A program made the translations under genes and the position numbers. Positions 10,705 through 21,340 of a stretch of DNA of 64,000 nucleotides are shown here, piece after piece (the stretch's first letter is position 1; each line of letters starts with the position of its first letter). The stretch spans positions 2,294,001 through 2,358,000 of the forward strand of contig NZ_CP048810.1 in the NCBI RefSeq assembly GCF_013347965.1, written 5' to 3'. The notes below the pieces were generated by a model. It made no database searches, was not told the origin of the DNA, and saw only the letters and a program-made list of their open reading frames with translations. Origin of the DNA: Pseudomonas bijieensis (GTDB lineage Bacteria > Pseudomonadota > Gammaproteobacteria > Pseudomonadales > Pseudomonadaceae).

Positions 10705-11847
10705 TTAAGTTCTGGCAACGACAGACGAATCCGCCTCGCCATGCGAAGGAAGCAATATCACTTCTCTTCTAAAATTGGGTGTAAACCGCCTGAAATACCA
10801 ATAGAAAACCAGCGGAAAAACCAAAAAATCCATTAAGTTAAACAAATAAAATATATCAAACGCAGCTCGAAACAGGTACAAAAAAAGCACAACCATCAAC
10901 AAATACTGCTTGTCAAGAATTAATCTGACAAATGAAGCACCAACGATAAAGAGGAAGAAAAATATTGAAACACCGAAAAAAGAATGCAGTCGCAAGAAAG
11001 CACTATGAGGATTACCACCAAAGGCTTCGACCATCGGTACGCTTGTTAAATTTACTCCAGCAAAAAAACCAACCAGATCCAAATGTGCAAAATAATCTTG
11101 AGCAATATAATATCGATCACTTTCCAACCCCGCAGCCAAATTTGTACGAGACTGCACAAGATCATAAAAATACTCCCACCCCACAACCAAAACAACAAAA
11201 CCCATAACAGCCATTACCGAAAACGCGAGAATACTTTTCCTCCATAAGACACATAACAAAAGCACAAAAGAAACAAAAACCCCATTACGACTATACAAAG
11301 GAATACTTATCAAGAACACCAAAACAAACAAGATCACCGATATAGACTTACCTGCATACTCTCGGGAAAAAATATACCCACTTGCAAGCGCCAACAATAT
11401 TCCAGAATATACATTTCGACTCGACCCGACAAGCACCTTGTTAAACTCTGCCGCCCCATACCCCTTCACCAGAATCAGCCAGATCGTAACAGTCAAGAAC
11501 ATAAAGAAGGGAAGCTCAAAGAATACCCACGTCTTCCGAAACTCCACTGCATACCAGGCAATACCAAGTCCTGAAACGAAAACAAAGACCGTGAAGACAC
11601 TTCTGTATTCTGACCAATCATAGTTAAACAACGAAAAAATAAACAAACAGAAAAACAAAAGCACTAGACCGAAAAAAGATAAGCCACTTCGTCCTCGAGA
11701 AACCGAAAGCATGACAGCGAATACAACGACTCCAACGGCCACTGCCCCCGTACGATAACTAATTTCTCCGTAATAAAAAGCCAACGCAGAAAGAACAATA
11801 TAAATACACGCATAAAAAAATGCGCTACCTCGAAGGACAGCGGCCAT
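10705..11847 (-). CDS. wzy: Putative O-antigen polymerase Wzy
   Basis: A 380-residue polytopic protein with about ten to eleven predicted hydrophobic helices and few recognisable motifs, as usual for Wzy. A larger hydrophilic stretch in the second half (about residues 230-280, [17 protein letters not shown] then [16 protein letters not shown]) resembles the periplasmic loop with an H-x6-H pattern found in O-antigen ligase/polymerase proteins. The ATG at 11847 has GAGGAAG upstream. The gene is conspicuously AT-rich, as polymerases often are because they are swapped between strains with the repeat unit. It is called Wzy rather than WaaL because the locus contains wzx and wzz but no other polymerase candidate. 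Confidence 0.78.
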
Positions 11848-11879
11848 TTAAATCTTCCTCACGAAATTAATGCCTGCCA

Positions 11880-12779
11880 TCATTCCAACTCAGCCCACCC
11901 CAGAATTTCGGCCGATGGAGACAACTTACTTGCCGCCAATATTTCTACACCGTATTTTTTTAGCTCGTGCTTTAGCGCTTTTATTACCGCCACCACTCCG
12001 ACACCGTTCTCGCCGATCGCGGTTTTATGCAACTCGAAGCCACCCTCATCTGGATTTATCGGTTGCGGCAACGCCCCATTATTGAAAATAATCTCAGAAG
12101 CGTCACGTCCATAAAAGTGCGGCCCCTGAAAATCCAGACCGTGAACGATAATCTTCTTAAAACCCATCATTTTGGCCAAAACAGCCAAACCAACGACACT
12201 GGATACTGCTTGGGGCAAGCCTTGGGTTTCCGCACACATCTGCGCCACTATGGGAGCAACGCCTTTGTTGCCAAAAATCCTGAAATGTCGATCCTTTATA
12301 AAGAATGCTTTATCCGAATACAGCGTACCGATAAGACCCATCGAATTTTTTAATTCAGATAAGTTCTTGAAAATAACTTTTGCATTCGCATAAACATTAA
12401 GTTTCTCCAAAGCAAAAAATGTTTGATAGGTATTCACAAAAAAACGCAAATCCTTAACTGACGCATTCTCAATGAAATGCAAGTCGGGATCATTACATTT
12501 CAAAAATGAAAAATTGAAACCTATAACAAACGATTTTGCACGATCGATAGTTTCATAGGAGTGATTCAGACTCCAACCTGACGCCAGGATATGACATTCA
12601 AGCGAAGAGTCGAACTTATTAGCAGAAGCAACAAACTCCTGCATCCCCAGCCGCTTCAGCTTGGAAGCTCGCACCTCTTGCAAAATGGATTCAAGCCAAA
12701 GTATTAGCCGTGCACACAAGAGCTGAAGTGGCAGCGGTAACTTTCCGAGAGCCACTCTGATATTTTTTTTACTTAACAT
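11880..12779 (-). CDS. Putative nonulosonate (pseudaminate) transferase, sialyltransferase-like
   Basis: A 299-residue protein with no close family that I recognise, but with features of GT42-type bacterial sialyltransferases. These are an N-terminal nucleotide-binding block (CHILASGWSLN, in place of the usual GNGPSL), a central SSVVGLAVLAKMMGFKKI followed by VHGLDF (compare TSG...LGYKEIYLSGIDF), and a later His-containing block before VIKALKHELKKYGVEIL and a PSAEIL ending. It directly follows pseI, overlapping by 11 bp, so it is the natural candidate to use the CMP-activated sugar. A DUF115/MptE-like fold is the main alternative. The gene is AT-rich like its wzy neighbour. The function is inferred, not shown. 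Confidence 0.6.
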   Translation of the reverse strand: MLSKKNIRVALGKLPLPLQLLCARLILWLESILQEVRASKLKRLGMQEFVASANKFDSSLECHILASGWSLNHSYETIDRAKSFVIGFNFSFLKCNDPDLHFIENASVKDLRFFVNTYQTFFALEKLNVYANAKVIFKNLSELKNSMGLIGTLYSDKAFFIKDRHFRIFGNKGVAPIVAQMCAETQGLPQAVSSVVGLAVLAKMMGFKKIIVHGLDFQGPHFYGRDASEIIFNNGALPQPINPDEGGFELHKTAIGENGVGVVAVIKALKHELKKYGVEILAASKLSPSAEILGWAELE

Positions 12780-13827
12780 AAAAATCTTTTATCTTGACAG
12801 GAGTATTCTTATCAATATCTCGAGTCGTCACGCTACCCACCACGGAGTCCATTAGCTTTGGATGCAAGCCAAATCCTGGCCTGACGCTCCTCACCGAATC
12901 AGCAGTGATGACGTCGCCTGCTTTCAAAGTTCTCACAAAATACAATGACCGCCGAAACTGCACGTTCCCTTGCTCACTAGATTTCCGGCCATAATCAACC
13001 CTTCCCAACGCAGCCCATGCAGTCTTACTGTCCCGACACAAAGCTACGAGTTCTGCAGGCTCAAGAGAGAAACTGTCATCAGGGCCACCACCACTCCGAT
13101 CAAGAGTAAAGTGCTTTTCAATGATTGAAGCACCCAGTGCAACACTGGTTATTGCAGTAGTATTATCTAATGTGTGATCGGACAAACCAGTCACCAGCCC
13201 GTGACGCTGGATCATGTCAGGTATTGTACGCAGGTTATAGTCATGCGCCGGGGCAGGATAACCACTTACACAGTGCAATACTGCCAGCTCTTTACAACCT
13301 CCCTCACGAGCAGCCTCAATAGCTTCTGCTATCTCCTCGGCGTCAGCCATCCCAGTGGAAATAATCATGGGTTTACCGGTGCTGGCAACATATTTGATGA
13401 GTGGTAAGTCAATAGCCTCAAAAGATGCAATTTTATAGGCTGGAGCATTTAACCCTTCCAGCAGATCGACCGCCGTATTATCGAACGGAGAACTGAAGAT
13501 TGTAATGTCTAATTTACGCGCATAATCAAAAAGCGGCGCGTGCCACTCCCAAGGCATATGAGCTTCTTGATAAAGCTCATAAAGTGTCCGCCCATCCCAA
13601 AGTCCACCGTTGATCTTGAAATCTGGAGAGTCGCAATCCAGCGTAATGGTATCGGCCGTGTAGGTTTGCAACTTGACCGCATCAGCACCAGTTTTTTTGG
13701 CTTCTTCGATAATTCTCTTTGCGGTTTCAAAGTTACCGTTATGGTTAGCAGACAACTCAGCTATTATATACGGCGGCTCATCAACACCGATCGTTCGACC
13801 TGCAATTGTAATAGTAGGATTTGTCAT
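12769..13827 (-). CDS. pseI: Pseudaminic acid synthase
   Basis: A NeuB-family enzyme that condenses 6-deoxy-AltdiNAc with phosphoenolpyruvate to pseudaminic acid. The protein is 352 residues from ATG 13827, which lies one base after the pseH stop with AGGA upstream. A longer frame from 13860 would run into pseH and is less likely. The TIM barrel opens with IIAELSANHNGN and includes DAVKLQTYTADT, FSSPFD, KIASFE and STGMA. The C-terminal SAF/antifreeze-like domain (about 285-350) contains SLYFVRTLKAGDVIT and RPGFG. The SANHNGN-type start distinguishes PseI from sialic acid synthases. Confidence 0.94.
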   Translation of the reverse strand: MTNPTITIAGRTIGVDEPPYIIAELSANHNGNFETAKRIIEEAKKTGADAVKLQTYTADTITLDCDSPDFKINGGLWDGRTLYELYQEAHMPWEWHAPLFDYARKLDITIFSSPFDNTAVDLLEGLNAPAYKIASFEAIDLPLIKYVASTGKPMIISTGMADAEEIAEAIEAAREGGCKELAVLHCVSGYPAPAHDYNLRTIPDMIQRHGLVTGLSDHTLDNTTAITSVALGASIIEKHFTLDRSGGGPDDSFSLEPAELVALCRDSKTAWAALGRVDYGRKSSEQGNVQFRRSLYFVRTLKAGDVITADSVRSVRPGFGLHPKLMDSVVGSVTTRDIDKNTPVKIKDFYVK

Positions 13828-13828
13828 A

Positions 13829-14359
13829 TTATTGATTCCTATTGCCTGACTGCCACTCATCGCTCAATAAACCGAAGCAGATGACCGCATGATAATTTTC
13901 GCCATCATAGTGCTGATCGCGCAGAACGCCTTCCTGCTGAAATCCCAAACCATGATGAAATTGAATTGACCGTTCATTGAATGCAAGTGCCTGACCACAA
14001 ACCTTATGCAGATTGAGGTGATTAAAAGCATAATCCAGAGCAGCTTTCCCTAGCTGGCGGCCAGTACCCTTAACAGCGTCCGGTGCAATGTAGAATCCCC
14101 AGTCCGCCACTGCGGACGAGCTAAGTTCCGTTATATTCACAAAGCCTTGAGGTTTTTCGCCTACCTCAAAAACCAATAGGTGTTTTTTTGAATCCTGGGA
14201 GGCTCGCTCAAACCACGCGCGATGCTCTTCGATTGAGATTTCATGCTGGGTGTACATATAACGACGAATCTCTGGATGATTACGCCAAGCCCGGACGACA
14301 TTCAGATCATTCGCTGTCATCTTACGTATCGCTAAACGCATTGCCTGCGAACTATCCAT
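13829..14359 (-). CDS. pseH: UDP-4-amino-4,6-dideoxy-AltNAc N-acetyltransferase
   Basis: A 176-residue GNAT acetyltransferase. The acetyl-CoA motif region is ADWGFYIAPDAVKGTGRQLG, followed by ALDYAFNHLNLHKV and FNERSIQFHHGLGF, typical of RimJ/PseH-type enzymes. It is placed between pseG and pseI and overlaps the pseG stop by 8 bp. In the pathway it would acetylate the 4-amino group made by PseC, giving the 2,4-diacetamido sugar that PseG then hydrolyses. An internal ATG (14341) gives MRLAIRKM and is also possible. The position in a complete pse set makes another GNAT role unlikely. Confidence 0.88.
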   Translation of the reverse strand: MDSSQAMRLAIRKMTANDLNVVRAWRNHPEIRRYMYTQHEISIEEHRAWFERASQDSKKHLLVFEVGEKPQGFVNITELSSSAVADWGFYIAPDAVKGTGRQLGKAALDYAFNHLNLHKVCGQALAFNERSIQFHHGLGFQQEGVLRDQHYDGENYHAVICFGLLSDEWQSGNRNQ

Positions 14360-15473
14360 TCATATCACTCATTTGCTTGAGAACTTGCTGAACCCCCAAG
14401 CCGTCGCAGATTCTACGTGCGTTTTCGCTCAGCGCCGACAATGTACTTTCGTTCGCCAAGGCACGTATAGCTGCTGGCAATTGCACGGGAATATCCCGAA
14501 CCTTTTCGATCAGTTCAACACATCCAGAACTTAACAGCGCCTCGGCACCTGACTTTTGATTATCCGCCAATACCACCATTATTGTGGGGACACCCAGACA
14601 GCATCGCTCCCAGGAGGTACCTCCTGCTGCACCGATAACGATGTCCGACGAGGCCATTCTCTCCCCCATGTCGGTAACATTTACCAGCACTTCGGTCGGC
14701 CATGGCATATTAGTCGCCGCGTCAGCTACTTCCGCCAAGTTAGGTGCATTGAGTCCCATCACAACGCTGATCCGGCAGCTCACTGGCAAAGGACACATTT
14801 TCAAGGCTTGCAACGTCAGTCCAGTAGCATTCGCCTGGTCAATTCCTCCCATCGTAACCAAAATATGTTGAAGGCTTGGAGAGGCTCGCCGTTCCAGACT
14901 TTGCTTGCGAAGTCTGGCAAATTCAGGTCGCAGGAGCGCATATTGCGGACCGACCATCAACCGGCAGCCGTTGGGCACCAATGCCGCATAGTCCAGCTCT
15001 GTGTGCCCCAGATTCTGGTCAAGCAATAAATCACAGATGTGCTTGCGATCAGCGAGATCGTCAATTACCAAAAGACGGAGGGCGAACGCTTGAAGCGCCG
15101 TTTCCCATTGCGTGTCCAAGGCGTAATGATCGACGACTAGCCAGTCAGGTTTCACATCCTCAAGGATCTTTCGGCAGACTTCCGCATCCTTTGATTGAGC
15201 GACACCTAACCAATGAGCATGAGCCGGCTCAACGCGTTGTAAAGCTGGCCTGCCTGAGGAGACGGCGCTGTCAACCGTGCTCAAACGATGAATATTGAAC
15301 CCCTTGCTACAAATCAAATCCAGCAAGTGCCCTGGATGCTCACGGCAAATGAAGTGACATTTCGCCCCCCCATCCCGAAGAGCTTCGGCCAACGTCAGAC
15401 AACGCATGACGTGTCCGCTACCTATTTGCAGCGAGGCGTCCACCCGAAAAGCTACGGTGGTCTTGTTCACCAT
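14352..15473 (-). CDS. pseG: UDP-2,4-diacetamido-2,4,6-trideoxy-beta-L-altropyranose hydrolase
   Basis: It removes UDP from the PseH product before PseI acts. It is a GT-B (MurG-like) fold of 373 residues from ATG 15473; a GTG one codon on forms GTGA with the preceding stop. The N-terminal phosphate-binding loop is RVDASLQIGSGHVMRC, with the catalytic GHxMR histidine. The C-terminal half has VTMGGIDQANATG and GAAGGTSWERCCLGVP, the UDP-binding segment shared with SpsG and MurG. The length is typical of the family plus a slightly longer linker. It follows the SDR gene and overlaps pseH. Confidence 0.92.
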   Translation of the reverse strand: MVNKTTVAFRVDASLQIGSGHVMRCLTLAEALRDGGAKCHFICREHPGHLLDLICSKGFNIHRLSTVDSAVSSGRPALQRVEPAHAHWLGVAQSKDAEVCRKILEDVKPDWLVVDHYALDTQWETALQAFALRLLVIDDLADRKHICDLLLDQNLGHTELDYAALVPNGCRLMVGPQYALLRPEFARLRKQSLERRASPSLQHILVTMGGIDQANATGLTLQALKMCPLPVSCRISVVMGLNAPNLAEVADAATNMPWPTEVLVNVTDMGERMASSDIVIGAAGGTSWERCCLGVPTIMVVLADNQKSGAEALLSSGCVELIEKVRDIPVQLPAAIRALANESTLSALSENARRICDGLGVQQVLKQMSDMNG

Positions 15474-16288
15474 GCCGTCCAACCACCGTCCACGACTACG
15501 TTGGTACCGTTTACAAAAGACGCTGCCGAGGAGGCAAGAAAGAGTATCGGCCCCATTATTTCTTTGGCTTGGCCAATACGCCCCATAGGAACCTTCTGTG
15601 CGAGTTTGGCAATAAACTCAGGAGCGGCCTGTTGTACTTGGATCGACGGAAATGGACCAGGCGAAATTGAATTGATACGAATACCTTCCTTGCCAAACTC
15701 ACATGCCGCGTATTTGCTCCAGTGGATCATCGCGGCCTTGGCTGCACCGTAAAAAGGAGGATTGGTTCCGGCCGCAGAGTCATAGATTCGAGCATCCGGG
15801 CTGACCATGCCATACATCGACCCGACATTGATGACCGATGCCTCGCCCGAAGAGCGCACAGCTCGGCGCATCGCCGGCAGGGCGCATTTTAAAACGTTAT
15901 GAGCGGCCACCAATGACACTTCATAAGCATCGAGATAATGCTCACCGCTGCTGGTTTCCACCGTTCCACCGCCCCCGGCGTAGGCATTATTGATCAATAC
16001 ATGCAGTTCACGCGGAGCAAACCCGTCCATAAAATCCCGCACCTGTATTTCGTCGCTCACATCGAATACAGCCAGCTCGGCGGAAAAGCCTTGGTTCGAC
16101 AATTCCTCAACTAGCAAAGTAGCACGCTCAAAGGAACGGGAATTGACCAGTACATGCGCGCCTGCAGCAGCCACAGCATTGCTCATCGCAATGCCTAGGT
16201 ACCCTGTAGCGCCAGTTATCAGTACGGTTTTGCCAGCCAATGAAAACAACTCGGTTCCGTTGTTCAATCTCACCCCCTCAACCAGCAT
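15467..16288 (-). CDS. Short-chain dehydrogenase/reductase in the pse cluster
   Basis: A classical SDR of about 268-273 residues. The cofactor motif is TGATGYLG (instead of the usual TGxxxGIG), with NNAYAGGG, the serine in NVGSMYG, the active-site YGAAK, and a C-terminal GTNVVVDGGW. It is not one of the six known pseudaminic acid enzymes. Its place between pseF and pseG and its tight overlaps suggest that it modifies the nonulosonate or a precursor. The start is uncertain: ATG 16288 lacks a ribosome site, GTG 16273 overlaps the previous stop as GTGA, and a TTG at 16267 has GAGGGG at good spacing. The substrate is unknown. Confidence 0.82.
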   Translation of the reverse strand: MLVEGVRLNNGTELFSLAGKTVLITGATGYLGIAMSNAVAAAGAHVLVNSRSFERATLLVEELSNQGFSAELAVFDVSDEIQVRDFMDGFAPRELHVLINNAYAGGGGTVETSSGEHYLDAYEVSLVAAHNVLKCALPAMRRAVRSSGEASVINVGSMYGMVSPDARIYDSAAGTNPPFYGAAKAAMIHWSKYAACEFGKEGIRINSISPGPFPSIQVQQAAPEFIAKLAQKVPMGRIGQAKEIMGPILFLASSAASFVNGTNVVVDGGWTAW

Positions 16289-17895
16289 GCAGGGTTCAAT
16301 GCCTGCTCCGTCAACCGAGGACGGGAGGCTTGTAGAGCTGCTATTTGCCCGGGCTCTAACGAGGGTTTACAGAACAGCTTCAGGTTTTCCGAAAGCTGTT
16401 CGATATTTTCCATTCCTACTGCGACCCCATCGACCCAGGTCAATGCTCGCAAGTAGGCGAAACAGAGATCTACAATACTGGCGCGCCCTAAGGTCGAAAC
16501 CTGATTACTCAACCATTCACGCACCGTCGCCGAATCATCCACATGAGCGGAACGCCAGCTCACCTCATTTTCATTAACCAACAGTCCTTGTAACAAGGCG
16601 CTGCGCACATGGATTATGAGCGAGCGGTCTTGTTTGGCCTCCTCAATAAGCGGTATCGAGTCGTCCCAACGCCAGTCCAGAAGGTTACATGGCAATTGGA
16701 TATAACTGACCAGCGGTTCTGCCAACGCCCATTGCAGCTCTACTGGGTTCTGCACAGAAACACCCAGTGCAGCGATGACGCCTTGCTGTCGTAACTCAGA
16801 GAGTCTTTCCCAAGCAGCCCCTTGCCATTGAACAAGCTGGGCAGCACGGTGCAGCATGACTACATCTAGCGTTTTTGATTCCAAATGGTGGCATGATTCG
16901 AAAATACTGGCATCTATAGCCGCTCGCACCCACAAGGAGTCAGCATCTACTGGGCAATCAGCCAGAGGGCTGAGTTTGGTAATGACAGTTGCCCGTCCTT
17001 CCCATCCACCCTTGAAAGCTGCCCCAACAACAGCCTCACTAGTACCGTAGGCACGCGCAGTATCGATATACTTGACGCCGTTGATCACAGCGGTGCGAAG
17101 CATAATACAAGCAAGGGCAAGATCAGGACGACCGGTTTTATTACTGACTCCATAGTTCAGTCCCAATTGCACAGTGCCAAATACCAGCTTATCGGGCGCT
17201 TGAGCCACGACTGGCCCGTCCGGTGAGACTTCCAGCCTTCGCATTAACTCCTGGCAAGGTACGTTTACAGCATCTGTAACCGAGCTGAATACCCTTTGGA
17301 CCACAAGATAATCGTCAAGATTGTCGACTGTGCAGCGCAACAATCCCAGCTCGCGAAATTTATAACGCTCAAAATAACAACGACCAAAGCGTCTGATGAT
17401 TAAAGGCGTTACGTGCTCAGTATCAAAAGCGTCGACAGCATTGTCCAACGCCCAGCGTAGATGCTCGAGTCGGGTAACTTCAGCGCTGACCCCGTAGGGC
17501 AAACCGGACTCTATACCATTGCAACAAAGATATTCGTACTCGCCCTGAACGAAGGCTTCTTCGATTTCATCCAGCAAGTGACCATCTGGAAAAACATTGT
17601 CCGCAGTCAAACGAAAAACAATGGTGTTGTCAGGGTACGCGTCCAACGCTAGGACTATACGTTCCAGAGGGCTTTCCAGACTTCCCCGAAAGCAATTCAA
17701 ACCATGCATATCGAGCACATCGGCGAGCGCATCGTCACTGGCCTGGCTAGAGGTAGCTACGATCACTTCTCGACCGGTGTTAGCCGCACGCTTCGCCGCC
17801 AATACCGCCAGCGGAATACCATTGATGGGTAATAGCACCTTGCCGGGAAGGCGAGACGAAGAAGTCCTCGCCTGCAGTACTGCAACGCTTGTCAT
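16270..17895 (-). CDS. pseF: PseF-type cytidylyltransferase fused to aldo/keto reductase
   Basis: A 541-residue two-domain protein. Residues about 1-235 are a SpsF/CMP-KDO-synthetase-like nucleotidyltransferase (VLQARTSSSRLPGKVL at the start, FRLTADNVFPDG for metal binding, TEHVTPLI), expected to make CMP-pseudaminic acid. Residues about 238-535 are an aldo/keto reductase beginning LVFGTVQLGLNYG. All four AKR catalytic residues can be placed: Asp in IDTA, Tyr in RAYG, Lys in ITKL, His in MLHRA. The start overlaps the pseC stop (ATGA). Standalone PseF proteins are about 230 residues, so the reductase is an addition. It may act on the same sugar together with the adjacent SDR. No stop or frameshift separates the domains. 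Confidence 0.88.
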   Translation of the reverse strand: MTSVAVLQARTSSSRLPGKVLLPINGIPLAVLAAKRAANTGREVIVATSSQASDDALADVLDMHGLNCFRGSLESPLERIVLALDAYPDNTIVFRLTADNVFPDGHLLDEIEEAFVQGEYEYLCCNGIESGLPYGVSAEVTRLEHLRWALDNAVDAFDTEHVTPLIIRRFGRCYFERYKFRELGLLRCTVDNLDDYLVVQRVFSSVTDAVNVPCQELMRRLEVSPDGPVVAQAPDKLVFGTVQLGLNYGVSNKTGRPDLALACIMLRTAVINGVKYIDTARAYGTSEAVVGAAFKGGWEGRATVITKLSPLADCPVDADSLWVRAAIDASIFESCHHLESKTLDVVMLHRAAQLVQWQGAAWERLSELRQQGVIAALGVSVQNPVELQWALAEPLVSYIQLPCNLLDWRWDDSIPLIEEAKQDRSLIIHVRSALLQGLLVNENEVSWRSAHVDDSATVREWLSNQVSTLGRASIVDLCFAYLRALTWVDGVAVGMENIEQLSENLKLFCKPSLEPGQIAALQASRPRLTEQALNPACWLRG

Positions 17896-19049
17896 AAAAC
17901 AGCCTTTCGCAACGAGGCAATCACCTGATCCTGCTGCTCGTCACTCATCGTCTGGAACATCGGGATGCTAATGGCCTCGCGGTAGTACGCTTGCGCCGCC
18001 GGGAAGTCCTCAGGCTTGAAGCCCATCTGCGCATAGTAAGGCTGGGTATGAACCGGGATGTAATGCAGGTTCACGCCAATTCCTTGCTCACGCAGCGATT
18101 CAAACACCTGACGATGAGTCTTGCTGATTCTATCCAGCTGTAAACGAATCACATAAAGATGCAGACCCGAGTAGCTGTCAGCGTGTTGCCAAGGAACAGT
18201 GACGGGTAAAGTCGCCAACAGATCGTTGTAACGTGCAGCCAATTGATGGCGACGGCCGACGTATTCGTCCAGACGCTCCATCTGACTGACGCCCAAGGCT
18301 GCCTGCAGTTCGGTCATTCGGTAATTGAATCCCAAATCAATCTGCTGGTAGTACCAGGGACCATCCGATTCATGAGTCATCTGTTGCGCATCGCGGGTAA
18401 TACCGTGGCTACGCAGCAGAGCCATTTTATTGGCCAGCGCTGCATTGTTGGTCAAAACCATGCCGCCTTCGGCAGTAGTAATGATTTTTACAGGGTGAAA
18501 ACTGAATACAGTAATGTCGCTGTACTTTCCGTTTCCGATAAATTCGCCTTGGTATTTGCCACCAATGGCATGGGAGGCATCTTCGATTACTTTGAACCCA
18601 TAGTGCTTGGCCAACCCGTGAATTGCTTTCATGTCGCAGGGCTGCCCGCAGAGATGAACCACCACGACAACTTTGGGCAGCGCATTCTCTCGCTCGGCCT
18701 GCTCCAGCTTGCGCTCCAACGCCAGTGGGCAGAGGTTGTAGGTGCGAGGATCGATATCAACGAAATCAACCTGCGCGCCGCAATAAAGACCGCAATTGGC
18801 AGAGGCCACGAAGGTTATAGGGCTCGTCCACAAACGATCACCAGGACCCAATCCCAGTGCAAGACAAGCGATATGCAACGCGGACGTCGCGCTGTTCACC
18901 GCCAGCGCATGGCTGGCTCCCACATGCTGGGCAACCTGCTGCTCGAAGCGGGGCACCATAGGCCCTTGGGTGAGGAAATCGGATTGCAACACCCCTATCA
19001 CCGCATCGATATCAGCTTGGGTTATGTCCTGGCGACCGTAGGGGATCAT
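17892..19049 (-). CDS. pseC: UDP-4-amino-4,6-dideoxy-N-acetyl-beta-L-altrosamine transaminase
   Basis: A PLP-dependent DegT/DnrJ/EryC1 aminotransferase of 385 residues that aminates C4 of the PseB product using glutamate. Visible features are VNSATSALHIACLALGLGPGD (phosphate-binding end), IEDASHAIGG (the Asp contacting the pyridine nitrogen), and FSFHPVKIITTAEGG, with the Schiff-base lysine. NYRMTELQAALG and the late GIGVNLHYIPVHTQPYY are typical of PseC. It starts 3 bp after pseB and overlaps the fused pseF gene. It is the second enzyme of the pseudaminic acid route. Confidence 0.95.
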   Translation of the reverse strand: MIPYGRQDITQADIDAVIGVLQSDFLTQGPMVPRFEQQVAQHVGASHALAVNSATSALHIACLALGLGPGDRLWTSPITFVASANCGLYCGAQVDFVDIDPRTYNLCPLALERKLEQAERENALPKVVVVVHLCGQPCDMKAIHGLAKHYGFKVIEDASHAIGGKYQGEFIGNGKYSDITVFSFHPVKIITTAEGGMVLTNNAALANKMALLRSHGITRDAQQMTHESDGPWYYQQIDLGFNYRMTELQAALGVSQMERLDEYVGRRHQLAARYNDLLATLPVTVPWQHADSYSGLHLYVIRLQLDRISKTHRQVFESLREQGIGVNLHYIPVHTQPYYAQMGFKPEDFPAAQAYYREAISIPMFQTMSDEQQDQVIASLRKAVL

Positions 19050-19052
19050 GTA

Positions 19053-20051
19053 TCAGATACTCCCGATCTTGGCTTCGTTGAGGGTGATCCAGTTTTTCAG
19101 ATCCTCATCGCTCATCCACTCAGTGTTGTTATCACTGGCGTAAACGAAGCCTTCAGCGACCTTTTTGCCGTCTTTGATTCGTTTGGGGCAGGTCGCCCAT
19201 TCGTTGATAACCGGCAGAATCTTAAAGTGCTCAGGGTACTCGTACGTGTAGTAGGAATCTTCGGCGCTGATCATCTGCTCATGCAGTTTTTCGCCAGGAC
19301 GAATGCCAACGATCTTTTGGGTAGCTTCAGGTGCAACGACACGAGCGAGATCTGTCACCTTCATCGATGGGATCTTCTTCACATAGATCTCACCACCTTC
19401 CATGTCTTCGAAGGCATGCCAAACCAGCTCGACACCCTCCTCCAGGGAGATCATGAAACGGGTCATACGTTCATCGGTGATTGGTAATTCACCTTTGTCC
19501 TTGATCGACATGAAGAACGGGATCACCGATCCGCGCGACCCCATCACGTTGCCATAACGCACAACCGCCATGCGGGTTTCGTGACCACCGGCGTAGGAGT
19601 TACCGGCAACAAACAGCTTATCGGACGCCAACTTGGTGGCGCCGTACAGGTTTATCGGGCTGCTGGCCTTGTCGGTGGACAATGCGACAACGCGTTTGAC
19701 GCCTTTGTCGATGCAGGCATCGATCAGATTCATCGCGCCATTGATGTTGGTCTTGATGCACTCGAAAGGGTTGTATTCTGCGGTTGGCACGATCTTGGTC
19801 GCCGCTGCGTGAACCACATAATCAACACCGTCCAGGGCGCGGTACAAGCGCTCCTTGTCGCGGACGTCGCCGATGAAGAATCGAACGCGGGAATCACCCT
19901 CGAATTTCTTCGCCATGTCCCATTGCTTCATTTCATCTCGGGAAAAGATGATGATCTTTTTCGGGTTGTATTTGGCCAGGGTCATTGGCACAAACGTGTT
20001 ACCAAAAGAGCCGGTACCACCGGTGATGAGAATGGTTTTATTGGTGAACAT
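19053..20051 (-). CDS. pseB: UDP-GlcNAc 4,6-dehydratase (inverting)
   Basis: The first enzyme of pseudaminic acid synthesis; it removes water from UDP-GlcNAc with C5 inversion. ATG 20051 is chosen because the 332-residue product then starts MFTNKTILITGGTGSFGNTF, as in PseB/FlaA1; the 40 extra upstream codons would run into wzx. Active-site features are STDKASSPINLYGATK, with an ordinary YxxxK, in contrast to the MxxxK of WbpM in the same locus, and VRYGNVMGSRGSVIPFF. It lies 32 bp after wzx. Two dehydratases in one locus draw on the same UDP-GlcNAc pool for two different sugars. Confidence 0.95.
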   Translation of the reverse strand: MFTNKTILITGGTGSFGNTFVPMTLAKYNPKKIIIFSRDEMKQWDMAKKFEGDSRVRFFIGDVRDKERLYRALDGVDYVVHAAATKIVPTAEYNPFECIKTNINGAMNLIDACIDKGVKRVVALSTDKASSPINLYGATKLASDKLFVAGNSYAGGHETRMAVVRYGNVMGSRGSVIPFFMSIKDKGELPITDERMTRFMISLEEGVELVWHAFEDMEGGEIYVKKIPSMKVTDLARVVAPEATQKIVGIRPGEKLHEQMISAEDSYYTYEYPEHFKILPVINEWATCPKRIKDGKKVAEGFVYASDNNTEWMSDEDLKNWITLNEAKIGSI

Positions 20052-20083
20052 TGACGCGTCCCTTGGTTGCTTCCTGCACGAAG

Positions 20084-21340
20084 TCAGGATTGAAATAAAC
20101 GGTAAGGTGCTGGCGTGAGGCGATAGAAGCTCCACGACTTCCAGCACAAAACGACAAAGAAACTGGTACACAGCCCTAGCGGCACCGCAAGATGAGGCCA
20201 GATTTGCACAAAACTCCAGGTCGCCAGAACAAAAATGATCAGACTGGCCAGGTGGCTATGAATGATCGGTCGATCACGACCTTGGGCATATAACCCATAG
20301 TGGGGAATCATGCCCAGCGCGTAGAGCACCGTAGCCAAAAGTATCCAGACGAAAAGTCCCTGCTGCTCACTGTAAAGCGGCTTGCCTAGCCAAGCCAGCA
20401 ATGGGCCTATCATAACCAGTGCGATTACCGAAAAAGCGCCGCAAAGACCAACGGTCTGCAGCAATAATCTGCGTATACCTTGATGAAAACCGACTGGATC
20501 GCGCTGCTGGTAGGCGCTGATCAGCCCTGGATAAATGAAGGCAAATACGCCCGAATCCAGAAATGACATCAACGCCATACTGACGCCCATGAACAAGACA
20601 TAGGCACCGAGCACGTCCAATCCCGCCAAATCTTGGAACCAATAACGGTCCAGGGTGAAAACCCCCCGAATGGCCAAGGTCGCAATCAGCAATGCGGACG
20701 CTACCTTTAATCCCTTGACGATCCAGGACCAGTCAACACCTTGCCGCCAACCAGATAGCTCCATGCGCTTGACGCGATATATACCCAAAAAAAGCGCTGC
20801 CGCCGATCCCAGCGTCCAAGCTCCAAATACCATGTCCAGATTTCTCGTCTCGGGTTCAACAAACATCAATCCCGTGATCAGGACGGCCCAGACCCCCGAC
20901 CGAAAAAACAGTATCAGACTCGCAAAGAGTTGATCAGAAATCGCGATCAGCAAGCGACCCAATTCCTGAGTCAGATGCTCAAGTATCAGTAAAACGAAGA
21001 ACCAGCCAATAACCTTCATTGGAAGCAAGCCTTTGATAAAAACCAAGCTCAGCAACGGCAAAAAAATGACGTACAGCATCAGGGTCAAAGCCCCTTGCGC
21101 TTTGAGTAGCCCACCCCACTCGTGACGCTCGCGCTTGAGCAGCTCACGAGTGCTATAGGTATAAAAATCGAACCCGAGAAAATACAGCGAATAACCAACG
21201 GTCGCGGCCAACAAGCCATAGATTCCTAGCTCGGCCGGCTCTAGAAAACGGGCAAGAAAAAAAATCAGCAAAAATTTGCTGACAAGCGTCAAGCCACGAA
21301 TTGCAACATTGGAAATCTGTAAAAAATTTCGAGCAGGCAT
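20084..21340 (-). CDS. wzx: O-unit flippase Wzx-like
   Basis: A 418-residue polytopic membrane protein of the MVF/polysaccharide transporter class with about twelve hydrophobic helices. The N-terminus (NVAIRGLTLVSKFLLIFFLARFLEPAELGIYGLL) has the pattern typical of Wzx/RfbX proteins, and the middle holds YWFQDLAGLDVLGAYVLFMG. It would move the undecaprenyl-linked repeat unit across the inner membrane for Wzy. It is the first gene of the O-antigen operon, about 70-80 nt downstream of the ops-like hairpin and candidate promoter. Sequence alone does not give its sugar specificity. Confidence 0.85.
   Translation of the reverse strand: MPARNFLQISNVAIRGLTLVSKFLLIFFLARFLEPAELGIYGLLAATVGYSLYFLGFDFYTYSTRELLKRERHEWGGLLKAQGALTLMLYVIFLPLLSLVFIKGLLPMKVIGWFFVLLILEHLTQELGRLLIAISDQLFASLILFFRSGVWAVLITGLMFVEPETRNLDMVFGAWTLGSAAALFLGIYRVKRMELSGWRQGVDWSWIVKGLKVASALLIATLAIRGVFTLDRYWFQDLAGLDVLGAYVLFMGVSMALMSFLDSGVFAFIYPGLISAYQQRDPVGFHQGIRRLLLQTVGLCGAFSVIALVMIGPLLAWLGKPLYSEQQGLFVWILLATVLYALGMIPHYGLYAQGRDRPIIHSHLASLIIFVLATWSFVQIWPHLAVPLGLCTSFFVVLCWKSWSFYRLTPAPYRLFQS

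What the first reader, a model, noticed from the sequence alone, without database searches (positions are those of the whole stretch)
15467..17895. PseF fused to an aldo/keto reductase, plus an extra SDR: possible route to a modified nonulosonic acid
Seen: in a continuous 541-residue frame the cytidylyltransferase domain is followed by an AKR domain with all four catalytic residues (Asp, Tyr, Lys, His). The next gene encodes an SDR with intact Ser-Tyr-Lys. Both lie inside the tightly overlapping pse block. Known: the standard pseudaminic pathway from UDP-GlcNAc to CMP-Pse needs six enzymes and no further redox step. Inference: the SDR and AKR may form an oxidation-reduction pair, for example epimerising or deoxygenating the sugar or its precursor, giving a derivative of pseudaminic acid. 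The fusion would couple this to activation. Similar fusions may already be in databases; I know of no proven product.
Basis: partly seen in the sequence, partly recalled or inferred. Interest (0 to 1): 0.82.

Follow-up and report, generated by a model that had tools for sequence, protein, structure and literature searches.

The report
EpaA–EpaB-type 8-epipseudaminic acid module
A Pseudomonas carries, inside its surface-sugar gene cluster, relatives of two enzymes recently shown in Acinetobacter to flip one carbon of the bacterial sugar pseudaminic acid, and here they sit where the usual sugar-activating enzyme gene should be.

Summary
A 541-residue cytidylyltransferase–aldo/keto-reductase fusion and a 273-residue SDR lie between pseC and pseG of a pse operon in a Pseudomonas O-antigen-type locus. 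A product is known for this architecture: the pair resembles EpaA–EpaB of Acinetobacter baumannii prophages, shown in 2025 by complementation and NMR to turn pseudaminic acid (Pse) into 8-epipseudaminic acid (8ePse) (PMC12053666). The fusion is 41% identical over its length to a 542-aa A. baumannii protein with exactly EpaA's domain boundaries. The cytidylyltransferase half is not PseF; it stands in for it. In a sample of 298 Pseudomonas genomes, 110 have PseI: 101 of the 103 without the fusion have PseF, against 1 of the 7 with it. The SDR follows directly in 45 of 47 loci. In two MAGs the halves are separate genes. Best reading: SDR and AKR invert C8 by oxidation then reduction, and the N-terminal domain makes the CMP-sugar. 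Product and order of steps are inferred. New variant of a known kind: a cluster-integrated 8ePse module.

The parts
16270..17895 (-). EpaA-like fusion, 541 aa: N-terminal SpsF-like cytidylyltransferase (Pfam match residues 5-174, about 17374-17883) and C-terminal aldo/keto reductase (residues 236-523, about 16327-17190)
   Evidence: 41% identity over 540 residues to A. baumannii P0265; conserved P-loop and Asp residues and AKR tetrad; AlphaFold2 mean pLDDT 94.8, pTM 0.90
15467..16288 (-). EpaB-like classical SDR, 273 aa, Ser157-Tyr180-Lys184
   Evidence: 55% identical to the SDR of the Bordetella genomosp. 13 orphan pair; next best match in its own genome 35% by bit score order
17892..19049 (-). 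PseC, UDP-4-keto-6-deoxy-L-AltNAc aminotransferase
   Evidence: TIGR03588 574 bits, cut-off 423.5
19053..20171 (-). PseB, inverting UDP-GlcNAc 4,6-dehydratase (listed GTG start; family match begins at residue 41)
   Evidence: TIGR03589 548 bits, cut-off 407.75
14352..15482 (-). PseG, UDP-sugar hydrolase
   Evidence: TIGR03590 317 bits, cut-off 153.55
13829..14359 (-). PseH, N-acetyltransferase
   Evidence: TIGR03585 130 bits, cut-off 93.1
12769..13860 (-). PseI, pseudaminic acid synthase
   Evidence: TIGR03586 504 bits, cut-off 340.25
11880..12779 (-). 299-aa protein without a Pfam family, overlapping pseI by 11 bp; position suggests the transferase of the activated sugar (inference only)
   Evidence: no significant Pfam match, best MptE-like E 0.031; among the loci searched only L010 has a homolog, 76%, also after pseI

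Best explanation
The two genes are a chromosomal, cluster-integrated EpaA-EpaB-type module that makes CMP-8-epipseudaminic acid for the O-antigen. PseB, PseC, PseH, PseG and PseI make Pse5Ac7Ac. The SDR (EpaB-like) oxidises the C8 hydroxyl of Pse to a ketone with NAD(P)+. The AKR domain reduces that ketone from the other face with NAD(P)H, inverting C8. The N-terminal SpsF-like domain of the same polypeptide attaches CMP, doing the job of the missing PseF. Shown by others in A. baumannii: EpaA plus EpaB convert Pse to 8ePse. Shown here: homology, conserved catalytic residues, conserved pairing and position, and absence of PseF. Inferred: the product in this organism, which enzyme oxidises and which reduces, and that epimerisation precedes CMP transfer (I favour this order at about 60%).
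For: (1) Demonstrated homolog: EpaA (542 aa, CTP_transf_3 5-192, Aldo_ket_red 239-525) and EpaB (262-aa adh_short_C2 SDR) changed a Pse capsule to about 85% 8ePse. (2) P0265, A. baumannii, 542 aa, has exactly those boundaries and is 41% identical to the window protein over 540 residues with 2 gap positions. (3) SDR directly downstream in 45 of 47 loci, two of these unfused; the window SDR is 55% identical to that of the Bordetella pair, whose fusion groups with P0265. (4) Of 298 sampled Pseudomonas genomes 110 have PseI; PseF over its cut-off in 101 of 103 without the fusion and in 1 of 7 with it. (5) Slot: Bordetella genomosp. 13 has pseB-C-F-G-H-I, the window pseB-C-fusion-SDR-G-H-I. (6) Two loci hold PseF fragments beside the fusion-SDR pair. 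(7) In a Colwellia MAG and an Osedax symbiont MAG the cytidylyltransferase and AKR are separate overlapping genes in that slot. (8) Catalytic residues conserved in both domains.
Against: 41% identity is moderate, and the tree puts the window protein in a 29-row group (support 88/85), outside the 18-row group (100/100) that holds A. baumannii P0265, so the stereochemical outcome could differ. No chemistry is known for a window-type cluster in the papers I saw. P0265 was taken as EpaA by species, length and domain boundaries; its identity with accession SBS22546.1 could not be checked, and the A. baumannii EpaB sequence was not obtained. 2 of 47 loci lack an adjacent SDR. 1 of 55 homologs lacks the AKR lysine. 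In 6 of 47 loci the best NeuB homolog is under 45% identical to the window's PseI, and 3 show none in the stretch held; those six, and L055, where scanned, score higher with the NeuB_NnaB than with the PseI model, so some relatives may act on another nonulosonic acid. In 12 of 42 genomes a further cytidylyltransferase-type match exists.
Confidence: 0.72

Rival explanations
1. Same redox pair, different outcome: the window-type subfamily oxidises and re-reduces another centre (C4, or C7 by way of an 8-ketone that acidifies H7), giving another isomer of Pse rather than 8ePse.
For: Window proteins fall outside the clade of the A. baumannii protein at 41% identity. Related A. baumannii modules differing in one SDR gene give different epimers (PMC5595891, passages).
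Against: Between the window and the Bordetella pair the SDR is more conserved (55%) than the fusion (42%), including a long block around the catalytic Tyr and Lys; the sugar supplied by the cluster is the same, Pse.
Confidence: 0.13
2. The cytidylyltransferase domain is not the activator; it only tethers or senses nucleotide, and another enzyme makes the CMP-sugar.
For: In A. baumannii the pair works beside a complete psaA-F set, so the domain need not be the activator there. It is not a PseF by family model.
Against: Only three PF02348 matches were found in the window's genome: a KdsB-like protein, the fusion and a weak match in a 481-aa frame; no match there reaches the PseF cut-off. Arg10, Arg15, Lys19, Asp99, Asp191 and Asp195 are the same in 55 of 55. 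Stand-alone versions sit in the pseF slot.
Confidence: 0.06
3. The reductases act before PseI on a UDP-sugar or on 6-deoxy-AltdiNAc, or deoxygenate the sugar, as the first reader also considered.
For: Genes lie between pseC and pseG, among early-step genes.
Against: Gene order need not follow reaction order: pseF, which acts last, lies between pseC and pseG in Bordetella. The demonstrated homologs invert C8, a free hydroxyl only after PseI (general chemical knowledge).
Confidence: 0.05
4. The module is inactive or unexpressed and the O-antigen carries plain Pse.
For: No expression data.
Against: Intact, overlapping frames, conserved active sites, and no other candidate of the Pfam family for CMP activation besides the KdsB-like protein and a weak match.
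Confidence: 0.04

Closest known systems
EpaA-EpaB of Acinetobacter baumannii Caudoviricetes prophages (PMC12053666)
   Same: Domain order and lengths (541 vs 542 aa; 273 vs 262 aa), full-length homology of the fusion (41%, to P0265), SDR family, gene order, pseudaminic acid as the sugar supplied
   Different: There an add-on carried by prophages, working in cells with complete psaA-F; here built into the chromosomal pse operon in place of pseF; separate subclade of the fusion
Vibrio B9-25K2 pse cluster (PMC7371886, section 8 and passages)
   Same: SpsF-like cytidylyltransferase plus AKR after pseC followed by a dehydrogenase, no NeuA homolog; authors suggested it may replace NeuA
   Different: No product beyond a diacetylated Pse was suggested; bifunctional PseH and a methylmalonyl-CoA-epimerase-like gene there
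aci and ela modules of A. baumannii (PMC5595891, PMC9676051, passages)
   Same: Extra oxidoreductases linked to C7/C8 epimers of a nonulosonic acid; EpaB is 41.5% identical to AciE; in the module table lgaG, the CMP-Leg synthetase gene according to PMC12053666, is not listed where aci or ela genes are, a similar swap
   Different: Legionaminic acid as base sugar; three or four genes; [quoted passage not shown]
Canonical PseF (TIGR03584)
   Same: Role (CMP activation of Pse) and operon position
   Different: Different family; no match in the fusion at E <= 0.001
DepB step of oxidation-reduction epimerisation of deoxynivalenol
   Same: An AKR completes inversion of a secondary alcohol by reducing the ketone (abstract start of PMC9427786 in a search listing); DepB is among the listed structural matches of the AKR domain
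   Different: Different substrate and oxidising enzyme; other AKRs score as high or higher, so this is an analogy only

Membership tests
EpaA (8ePse-forming CTP_transf_3/AKR fusion) | N-terminal CTP_transf_3 and C-terminal Aldo_ket_red in about 540 residues, collinear homology | tested here: met
EpaA (8ePse-forming CTP_transf_3/AKR fusion) | Groups with the A. baumannii protein rather than beside it | tested here: inconclusive
   two supported groups of one family; window in the one without P0265
EpaA (8ePse-forming CTP_transf_3/AKR fusion) | AKR tetrad and nucleotidyltransferase residues kept | tested here: met
EpaA (8ePse-forming CTP_transf_3/AKR fusion) | Converts Pse to 8ePse together with EpaB | not testable with these tools
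   needs enzymology or glycan NMR
EpaB (partner SDR) | adh_short_C2 SDR encoded directly downstream of epaA with Ser-Tyr-Lys | tested here: met
EpaB (partner SDR) | Sequence similarity to A. baumannii EpaB itself | not tested
   sequence not obtained; compared only with the Bordetella genomosp. 13 partner SDR, 55%
PseF (TIGR03584) | Match over the family cut-off | tested here: not met
   not among the families matched by the fusion at E <= 0.001; no match over the cut-off in the genome
Canonical six-enzyme pse cluster | PseB, C, H, G, I present | tested here: met
Canonical six-enzyme pse cluster | PseF present | tested here: not met

The most novel reading that the evidence does not exclude
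8ePse is not an Acinetobacter oddity made by phages but a widespread bacterial (and perhaps archaeal) sugar with its own dedicated pathway. The branch point is free Pse: the SDR/AKR pair inverts C8 and a dedicated, fused CMP-8ePse synthetase captures the epimer, so that the whole output of the pse operon is committed to 8ePse. Phages carry a portable copy that converts hosts with an ordinary pse locus.
Probability: 0.45. Interest if true: 0.66.

Novelty: new variant of a known kind. Interest (0 to 1): 0.52.

Why it matters
In the papers seen, 8ePse is reported only from A. baumannii capsules. The window and its relatives predict it in Pseudomonas O-antigens and in bacteria of other phyla. They also account for pse clusters without PseF, offer a simple system in which to find the order of epimerisation and CMP transfer, and would let annotation tell such clusters from plain pseudaminic acid loci, which matters for O-typing and for phage receptor prediction.

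Tried and rejected
Searches for the fusion in phage records and IMG/VR viral contigs found no relative; with a more divergent alignment 23 viral contigs matched, none beyond about residue 247, that is the cytidylyltransferase half, so no phage-borne copy could be examined here. The plasmid search gave 37 records, 2 with at least 80% of the fusion; not followed. The idea that the fused domain is a PseF was rejected. The second NeuB of the genome (L009) was considered as another user of the cytidylyltransferase; it is a 633-aa frame outside the window next to a kinase-like gene (domain reading by eye) and was left unresolved. A structure of the 299-aa protein after pseI was predicted from two sequences; at mean pLDDT 37.6 it is not usable. 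DepB as a special structural neighbour of the AKR domain was weakened: AKR11C1 and L-galactose dehydrogenases score as high or higher. A class-wide count of the fusion was not obtained. Whether the fusion brings the two active sites together was not tested; no model coordinates were among the files open to scripts. Paper searches (no hit) gave no further paper, as far as titles and abstract starts show, on the built-in form.
Full report
What is there. On the minus strand, 12769-20171 is a pse operon in the order pseB, pseC, fusion, SDR, pseG, pseH, pseI; pseB and pseC are 3 bp apart and the other junctions overlap. All five Pse enzymes pass their NCBIfam cut-offs. Around it are Wzz, GDP-mannose dehydratase, epimerase, ManC-type and Glycos_transf_4 proteins, a 669-aa Polysacc_synt_2 protein, and a 418-aa protein with only a sub-cut-off Polysacc_synt match: an O-antigen type locus (this reading is mine). 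The window lies in a 6.73 Mb single-contig genome. I call it Pseudomonas because the closest named relatives of the fusion are Pseudomonas (P. ogarae 92%) and because G112, given as of the same genus, has its fusion at the coordinates of locus L010, a P. uvaldensis record.

The known relative. PMC12053666 (abstract, sections 4, 6, 8, 9 and 12, part 1 of 2 of the methods, and passages read) describes EpaA (542 aa, domains at 5-192 and 239-525) and EpaB (262-aa SDR) of A. baumannii prophages. Introduced into a Pse-producing strain, they made 8ePse about 85% of the nonulosonic acid in the capsule by NMR. In the protein database I found a 542-aa A. baumannii aldo/keto reductase, P0265, with 14 member sequences, whose Pfam boundaries are exactly 5-192 and 239-525. 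It is 41% identical to the window protein over 540 residues with two gap positions. I take P0265 to be EpaA or a near-identical form; the accession itself could not be checked. A maximum-likelihood tree of 55 homologs places P0265 in an 18-row group (100/100) with, among others, proteins named as Enterobacter, Kosakonia, Kluyvera, Mangrovibacter, Vibrio breoganii and Bordetella, and the window protein in a 29-row group (88/85). They are two branches of one family.

Partner and setting. A scan of GTDB species genomes with an alignment of the fusion gave 50 loci; the patterns came from close relatives of the window protein, so the sample leans towards them. In 47 of the 50 the match reaches residue 510 or beyond; the other three are cut by contig ends. 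The SDR follows directly in 45 of 47, two of them the unfused cases below; the exceptions are L011 (no SDR found) and L045 (about 3 kb away). Of the 47, 41 have a PseC homolog (38% identity or more), 43 a PseG homolog (24% or more) and 38 a PseI homolog (45% or more) within the stretch held; 6 have only a weaker NeuB homolog and 3 none. Ten NeuB homologs, most of them weak cases, were scanned: seven (L012, L016, L039, L043, L048, L055, L056) score higher with NeuB_NnaB, below its cut-off, and three (L031, L041, L050) are over the PseI cut-off. A minority of relatives may therefore use another nonulosonic acid. By record title the family extends to Chlorobium, Desulfosporosinus, the archaeon Methanospirillum, Verrucomicrobia, Elusimicrobia and Gemmatimonadales. 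In a sample of 390 genomes of the window's order, 7 had the fusion, one of them only in part.

It replaces PseF. The window genome has no PseF over the cut-off, and its PF02348 matches are a KdsB-like protein, the fusion and one weak hit in a 481-aa frame. In a sample of 298 Pseudomonas genomes (own genome included) 7 have the fusion, 103 PseF and 110 PseI. PseF is present in 101 of 103 PseI genomes without the fusion and in 1 of 7 with it; Fisher p 9e-8, not corrected for relatedness. Of the two genomes without either, G223 has a PseF-like match just under the cut-off (184 against 205.7 bits) and G078 none beyond a KdsB-strength match. The one genome with both, G112, has its PseF about 105 kb from the fusion; in the 20 kb around that PseF (L106) only a 31% PseC-like protein was found. 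In 42 fusion-bearing genomes searched whole (44 asked, 2 not held), my count is 30 without any further PF02348 match below 1e-10 besides at most one KdsB-like protein and the fusion or its unfused counterpart; 12 have one (KdsB assigned by score and length; drafts and MAGs included). In Bordetella genomosp. 13 the canonical order is pseB-C-F-G-H-I; in window-type clusters the fusion and SDR fill the pseF slot. Two loci hold PseF fragments there: a C-terminal 120-residue piece after the SDR in L013 and a 50-residue piece before the fusion in L039; both are draft or single-cell assemblies, and L039 also holds a complete NeuA/PseF-like gene about 4 kb upstream. In Colwellia (L053) and Osedax symbiont Rs2 (L056) MAGs the cytidylyltransferase (232 and 227 aa) and the AKR (317 and 314 aa) are separate overlapping genes, in the order pseC, cytidylyltransferase, AKR, SDR. 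The domains can therefore probably work apart, and the cytidylyltransferase stands alone where PseF would be.

Add-on versus built-in. Bordetella genomosp. 13 also carries an orphan fusion-SDR pair with no homolog of the window's pse genes in the 21.6 kb held, about 200 bp from a tRNA-Gly gene, besides its complete canonical pse cluster on another contig. This resembles A. baumannii, where the prophage sits in a tRNA-Gly gene and psaA-F lies at the K locus. The flanks of the Bordetella pair were listed as ORFs but not scanned for phage families, so its mobility is not shown.

Mechanism. Most likely the SDR oxidises C8 and the AKR domain reduces it from the other face. The two best matches of the SDR among solved structures are named gluconate 5-dehydrogenases, which act on a secondary alcohol of an open-chain sugar acid (general knowledge). 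That EpaA keeps an intact cytidylyltransferase even as an add-on next to a complete psa set, and that lgaG is not listed in the A. baumannii modules for 8eLeg or Aci, suggests that the epimer is made as the free sugar and activated by its own synthetase. Against this, PMC5595891 (passages) proposed CMP-Leg as the substrate that the aci enzymes convert and credits lgaABCDEF with making it. This remains open.

Literature. Papers were searched with these terms: 8-epilegionaminic/acinetaminic acid/oxidoreductase (8 papers); pseudaminic acid with aldo keto reductase and short-chain dehydrogenase (none); pseudaminic with aldo-keto reductase (2 papers); 8-epipseudaminic (5 papers, Acinetobacter work or an NMR review by title and abstract start); (wider nonulosonic acid terms); epaA/epaB/pseudaminic (two relevant of 19). 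PMC7371886 (section 8 and passages) described the same fusion plus dehydrogenase in a Vibrio pse cluster and suggested that it may replace NeuA, without assigning it a product. PMC13228068, PMC11494974, PMC9912281, PMC9676051 and PMC5595891 were seen in passages. In these searches I met no paper linking the built-in form to 8ePse; most subscription papers and all preprints are outside this library.

Verdict. Real, well conserved and largely explained by a 2025 discovery. The new part is the built-in form that replaces PseF and its breadth, which predicts 8ePse in Pseudomonas O-antigens.

Noticed in passing
L037 9980-12663 and L105 6100-11714: Bordetella genomosp. 13 has an orphan fusion-SDR pair beside tRNA-Gly and a complete canonical pseBCFGHI cluster on another contig, resembling the A. 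baumannii arrangement.
   Followed up: partly
L009 403-3668: The window's genome has a second NeuB-type gene (633-aa frame, longer than PseI) next to a kinase-like gene with CBS-like start (read by eye), outside the window; no further PF02348 cytidylyltransferase was found for it.
   Followed up: partly
L013 7349-7935: In a Crenothrix MAG an LmbE-like N-terminal part (read by eye) is joined to the C-terminal 120 residues of PseF, directly after the SDR gene; a relic or an assembly chimera.
   Followed up: partly
L053 4170-6584; L056 9992-12410: Unfused version: cytidylyltransferase and aldo/keto reductase as separate overlapping genes in two MAGs, followed by the SDR.
   Followed up: yes
L041 10001-11593: Thalassotalea marina homolog has Asn in place of the AKR catalytic Lys and a long branch; its AKR may be impaired or changed.
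   Followed up: no
L042 and L044, around 11605-12405: Burkholderiales 67-32 and Pigmentiphaga clusters have a partner SDR only 39-40% identical to the window's and share a long branch of the fusion; possibly a different product.
   Followed up: no
L011 10001-13000: Burkholderiales PBB3 locus has a complete fusion without an SDR nearby and a second, partial fusion-like frame downstream.
   Followed up: no
window 11880-12779: 299-aa protein without a recognised family directly after pseI; candidate transferase for the activated sugar; structure prediction was not usable.
   Followed up: partly
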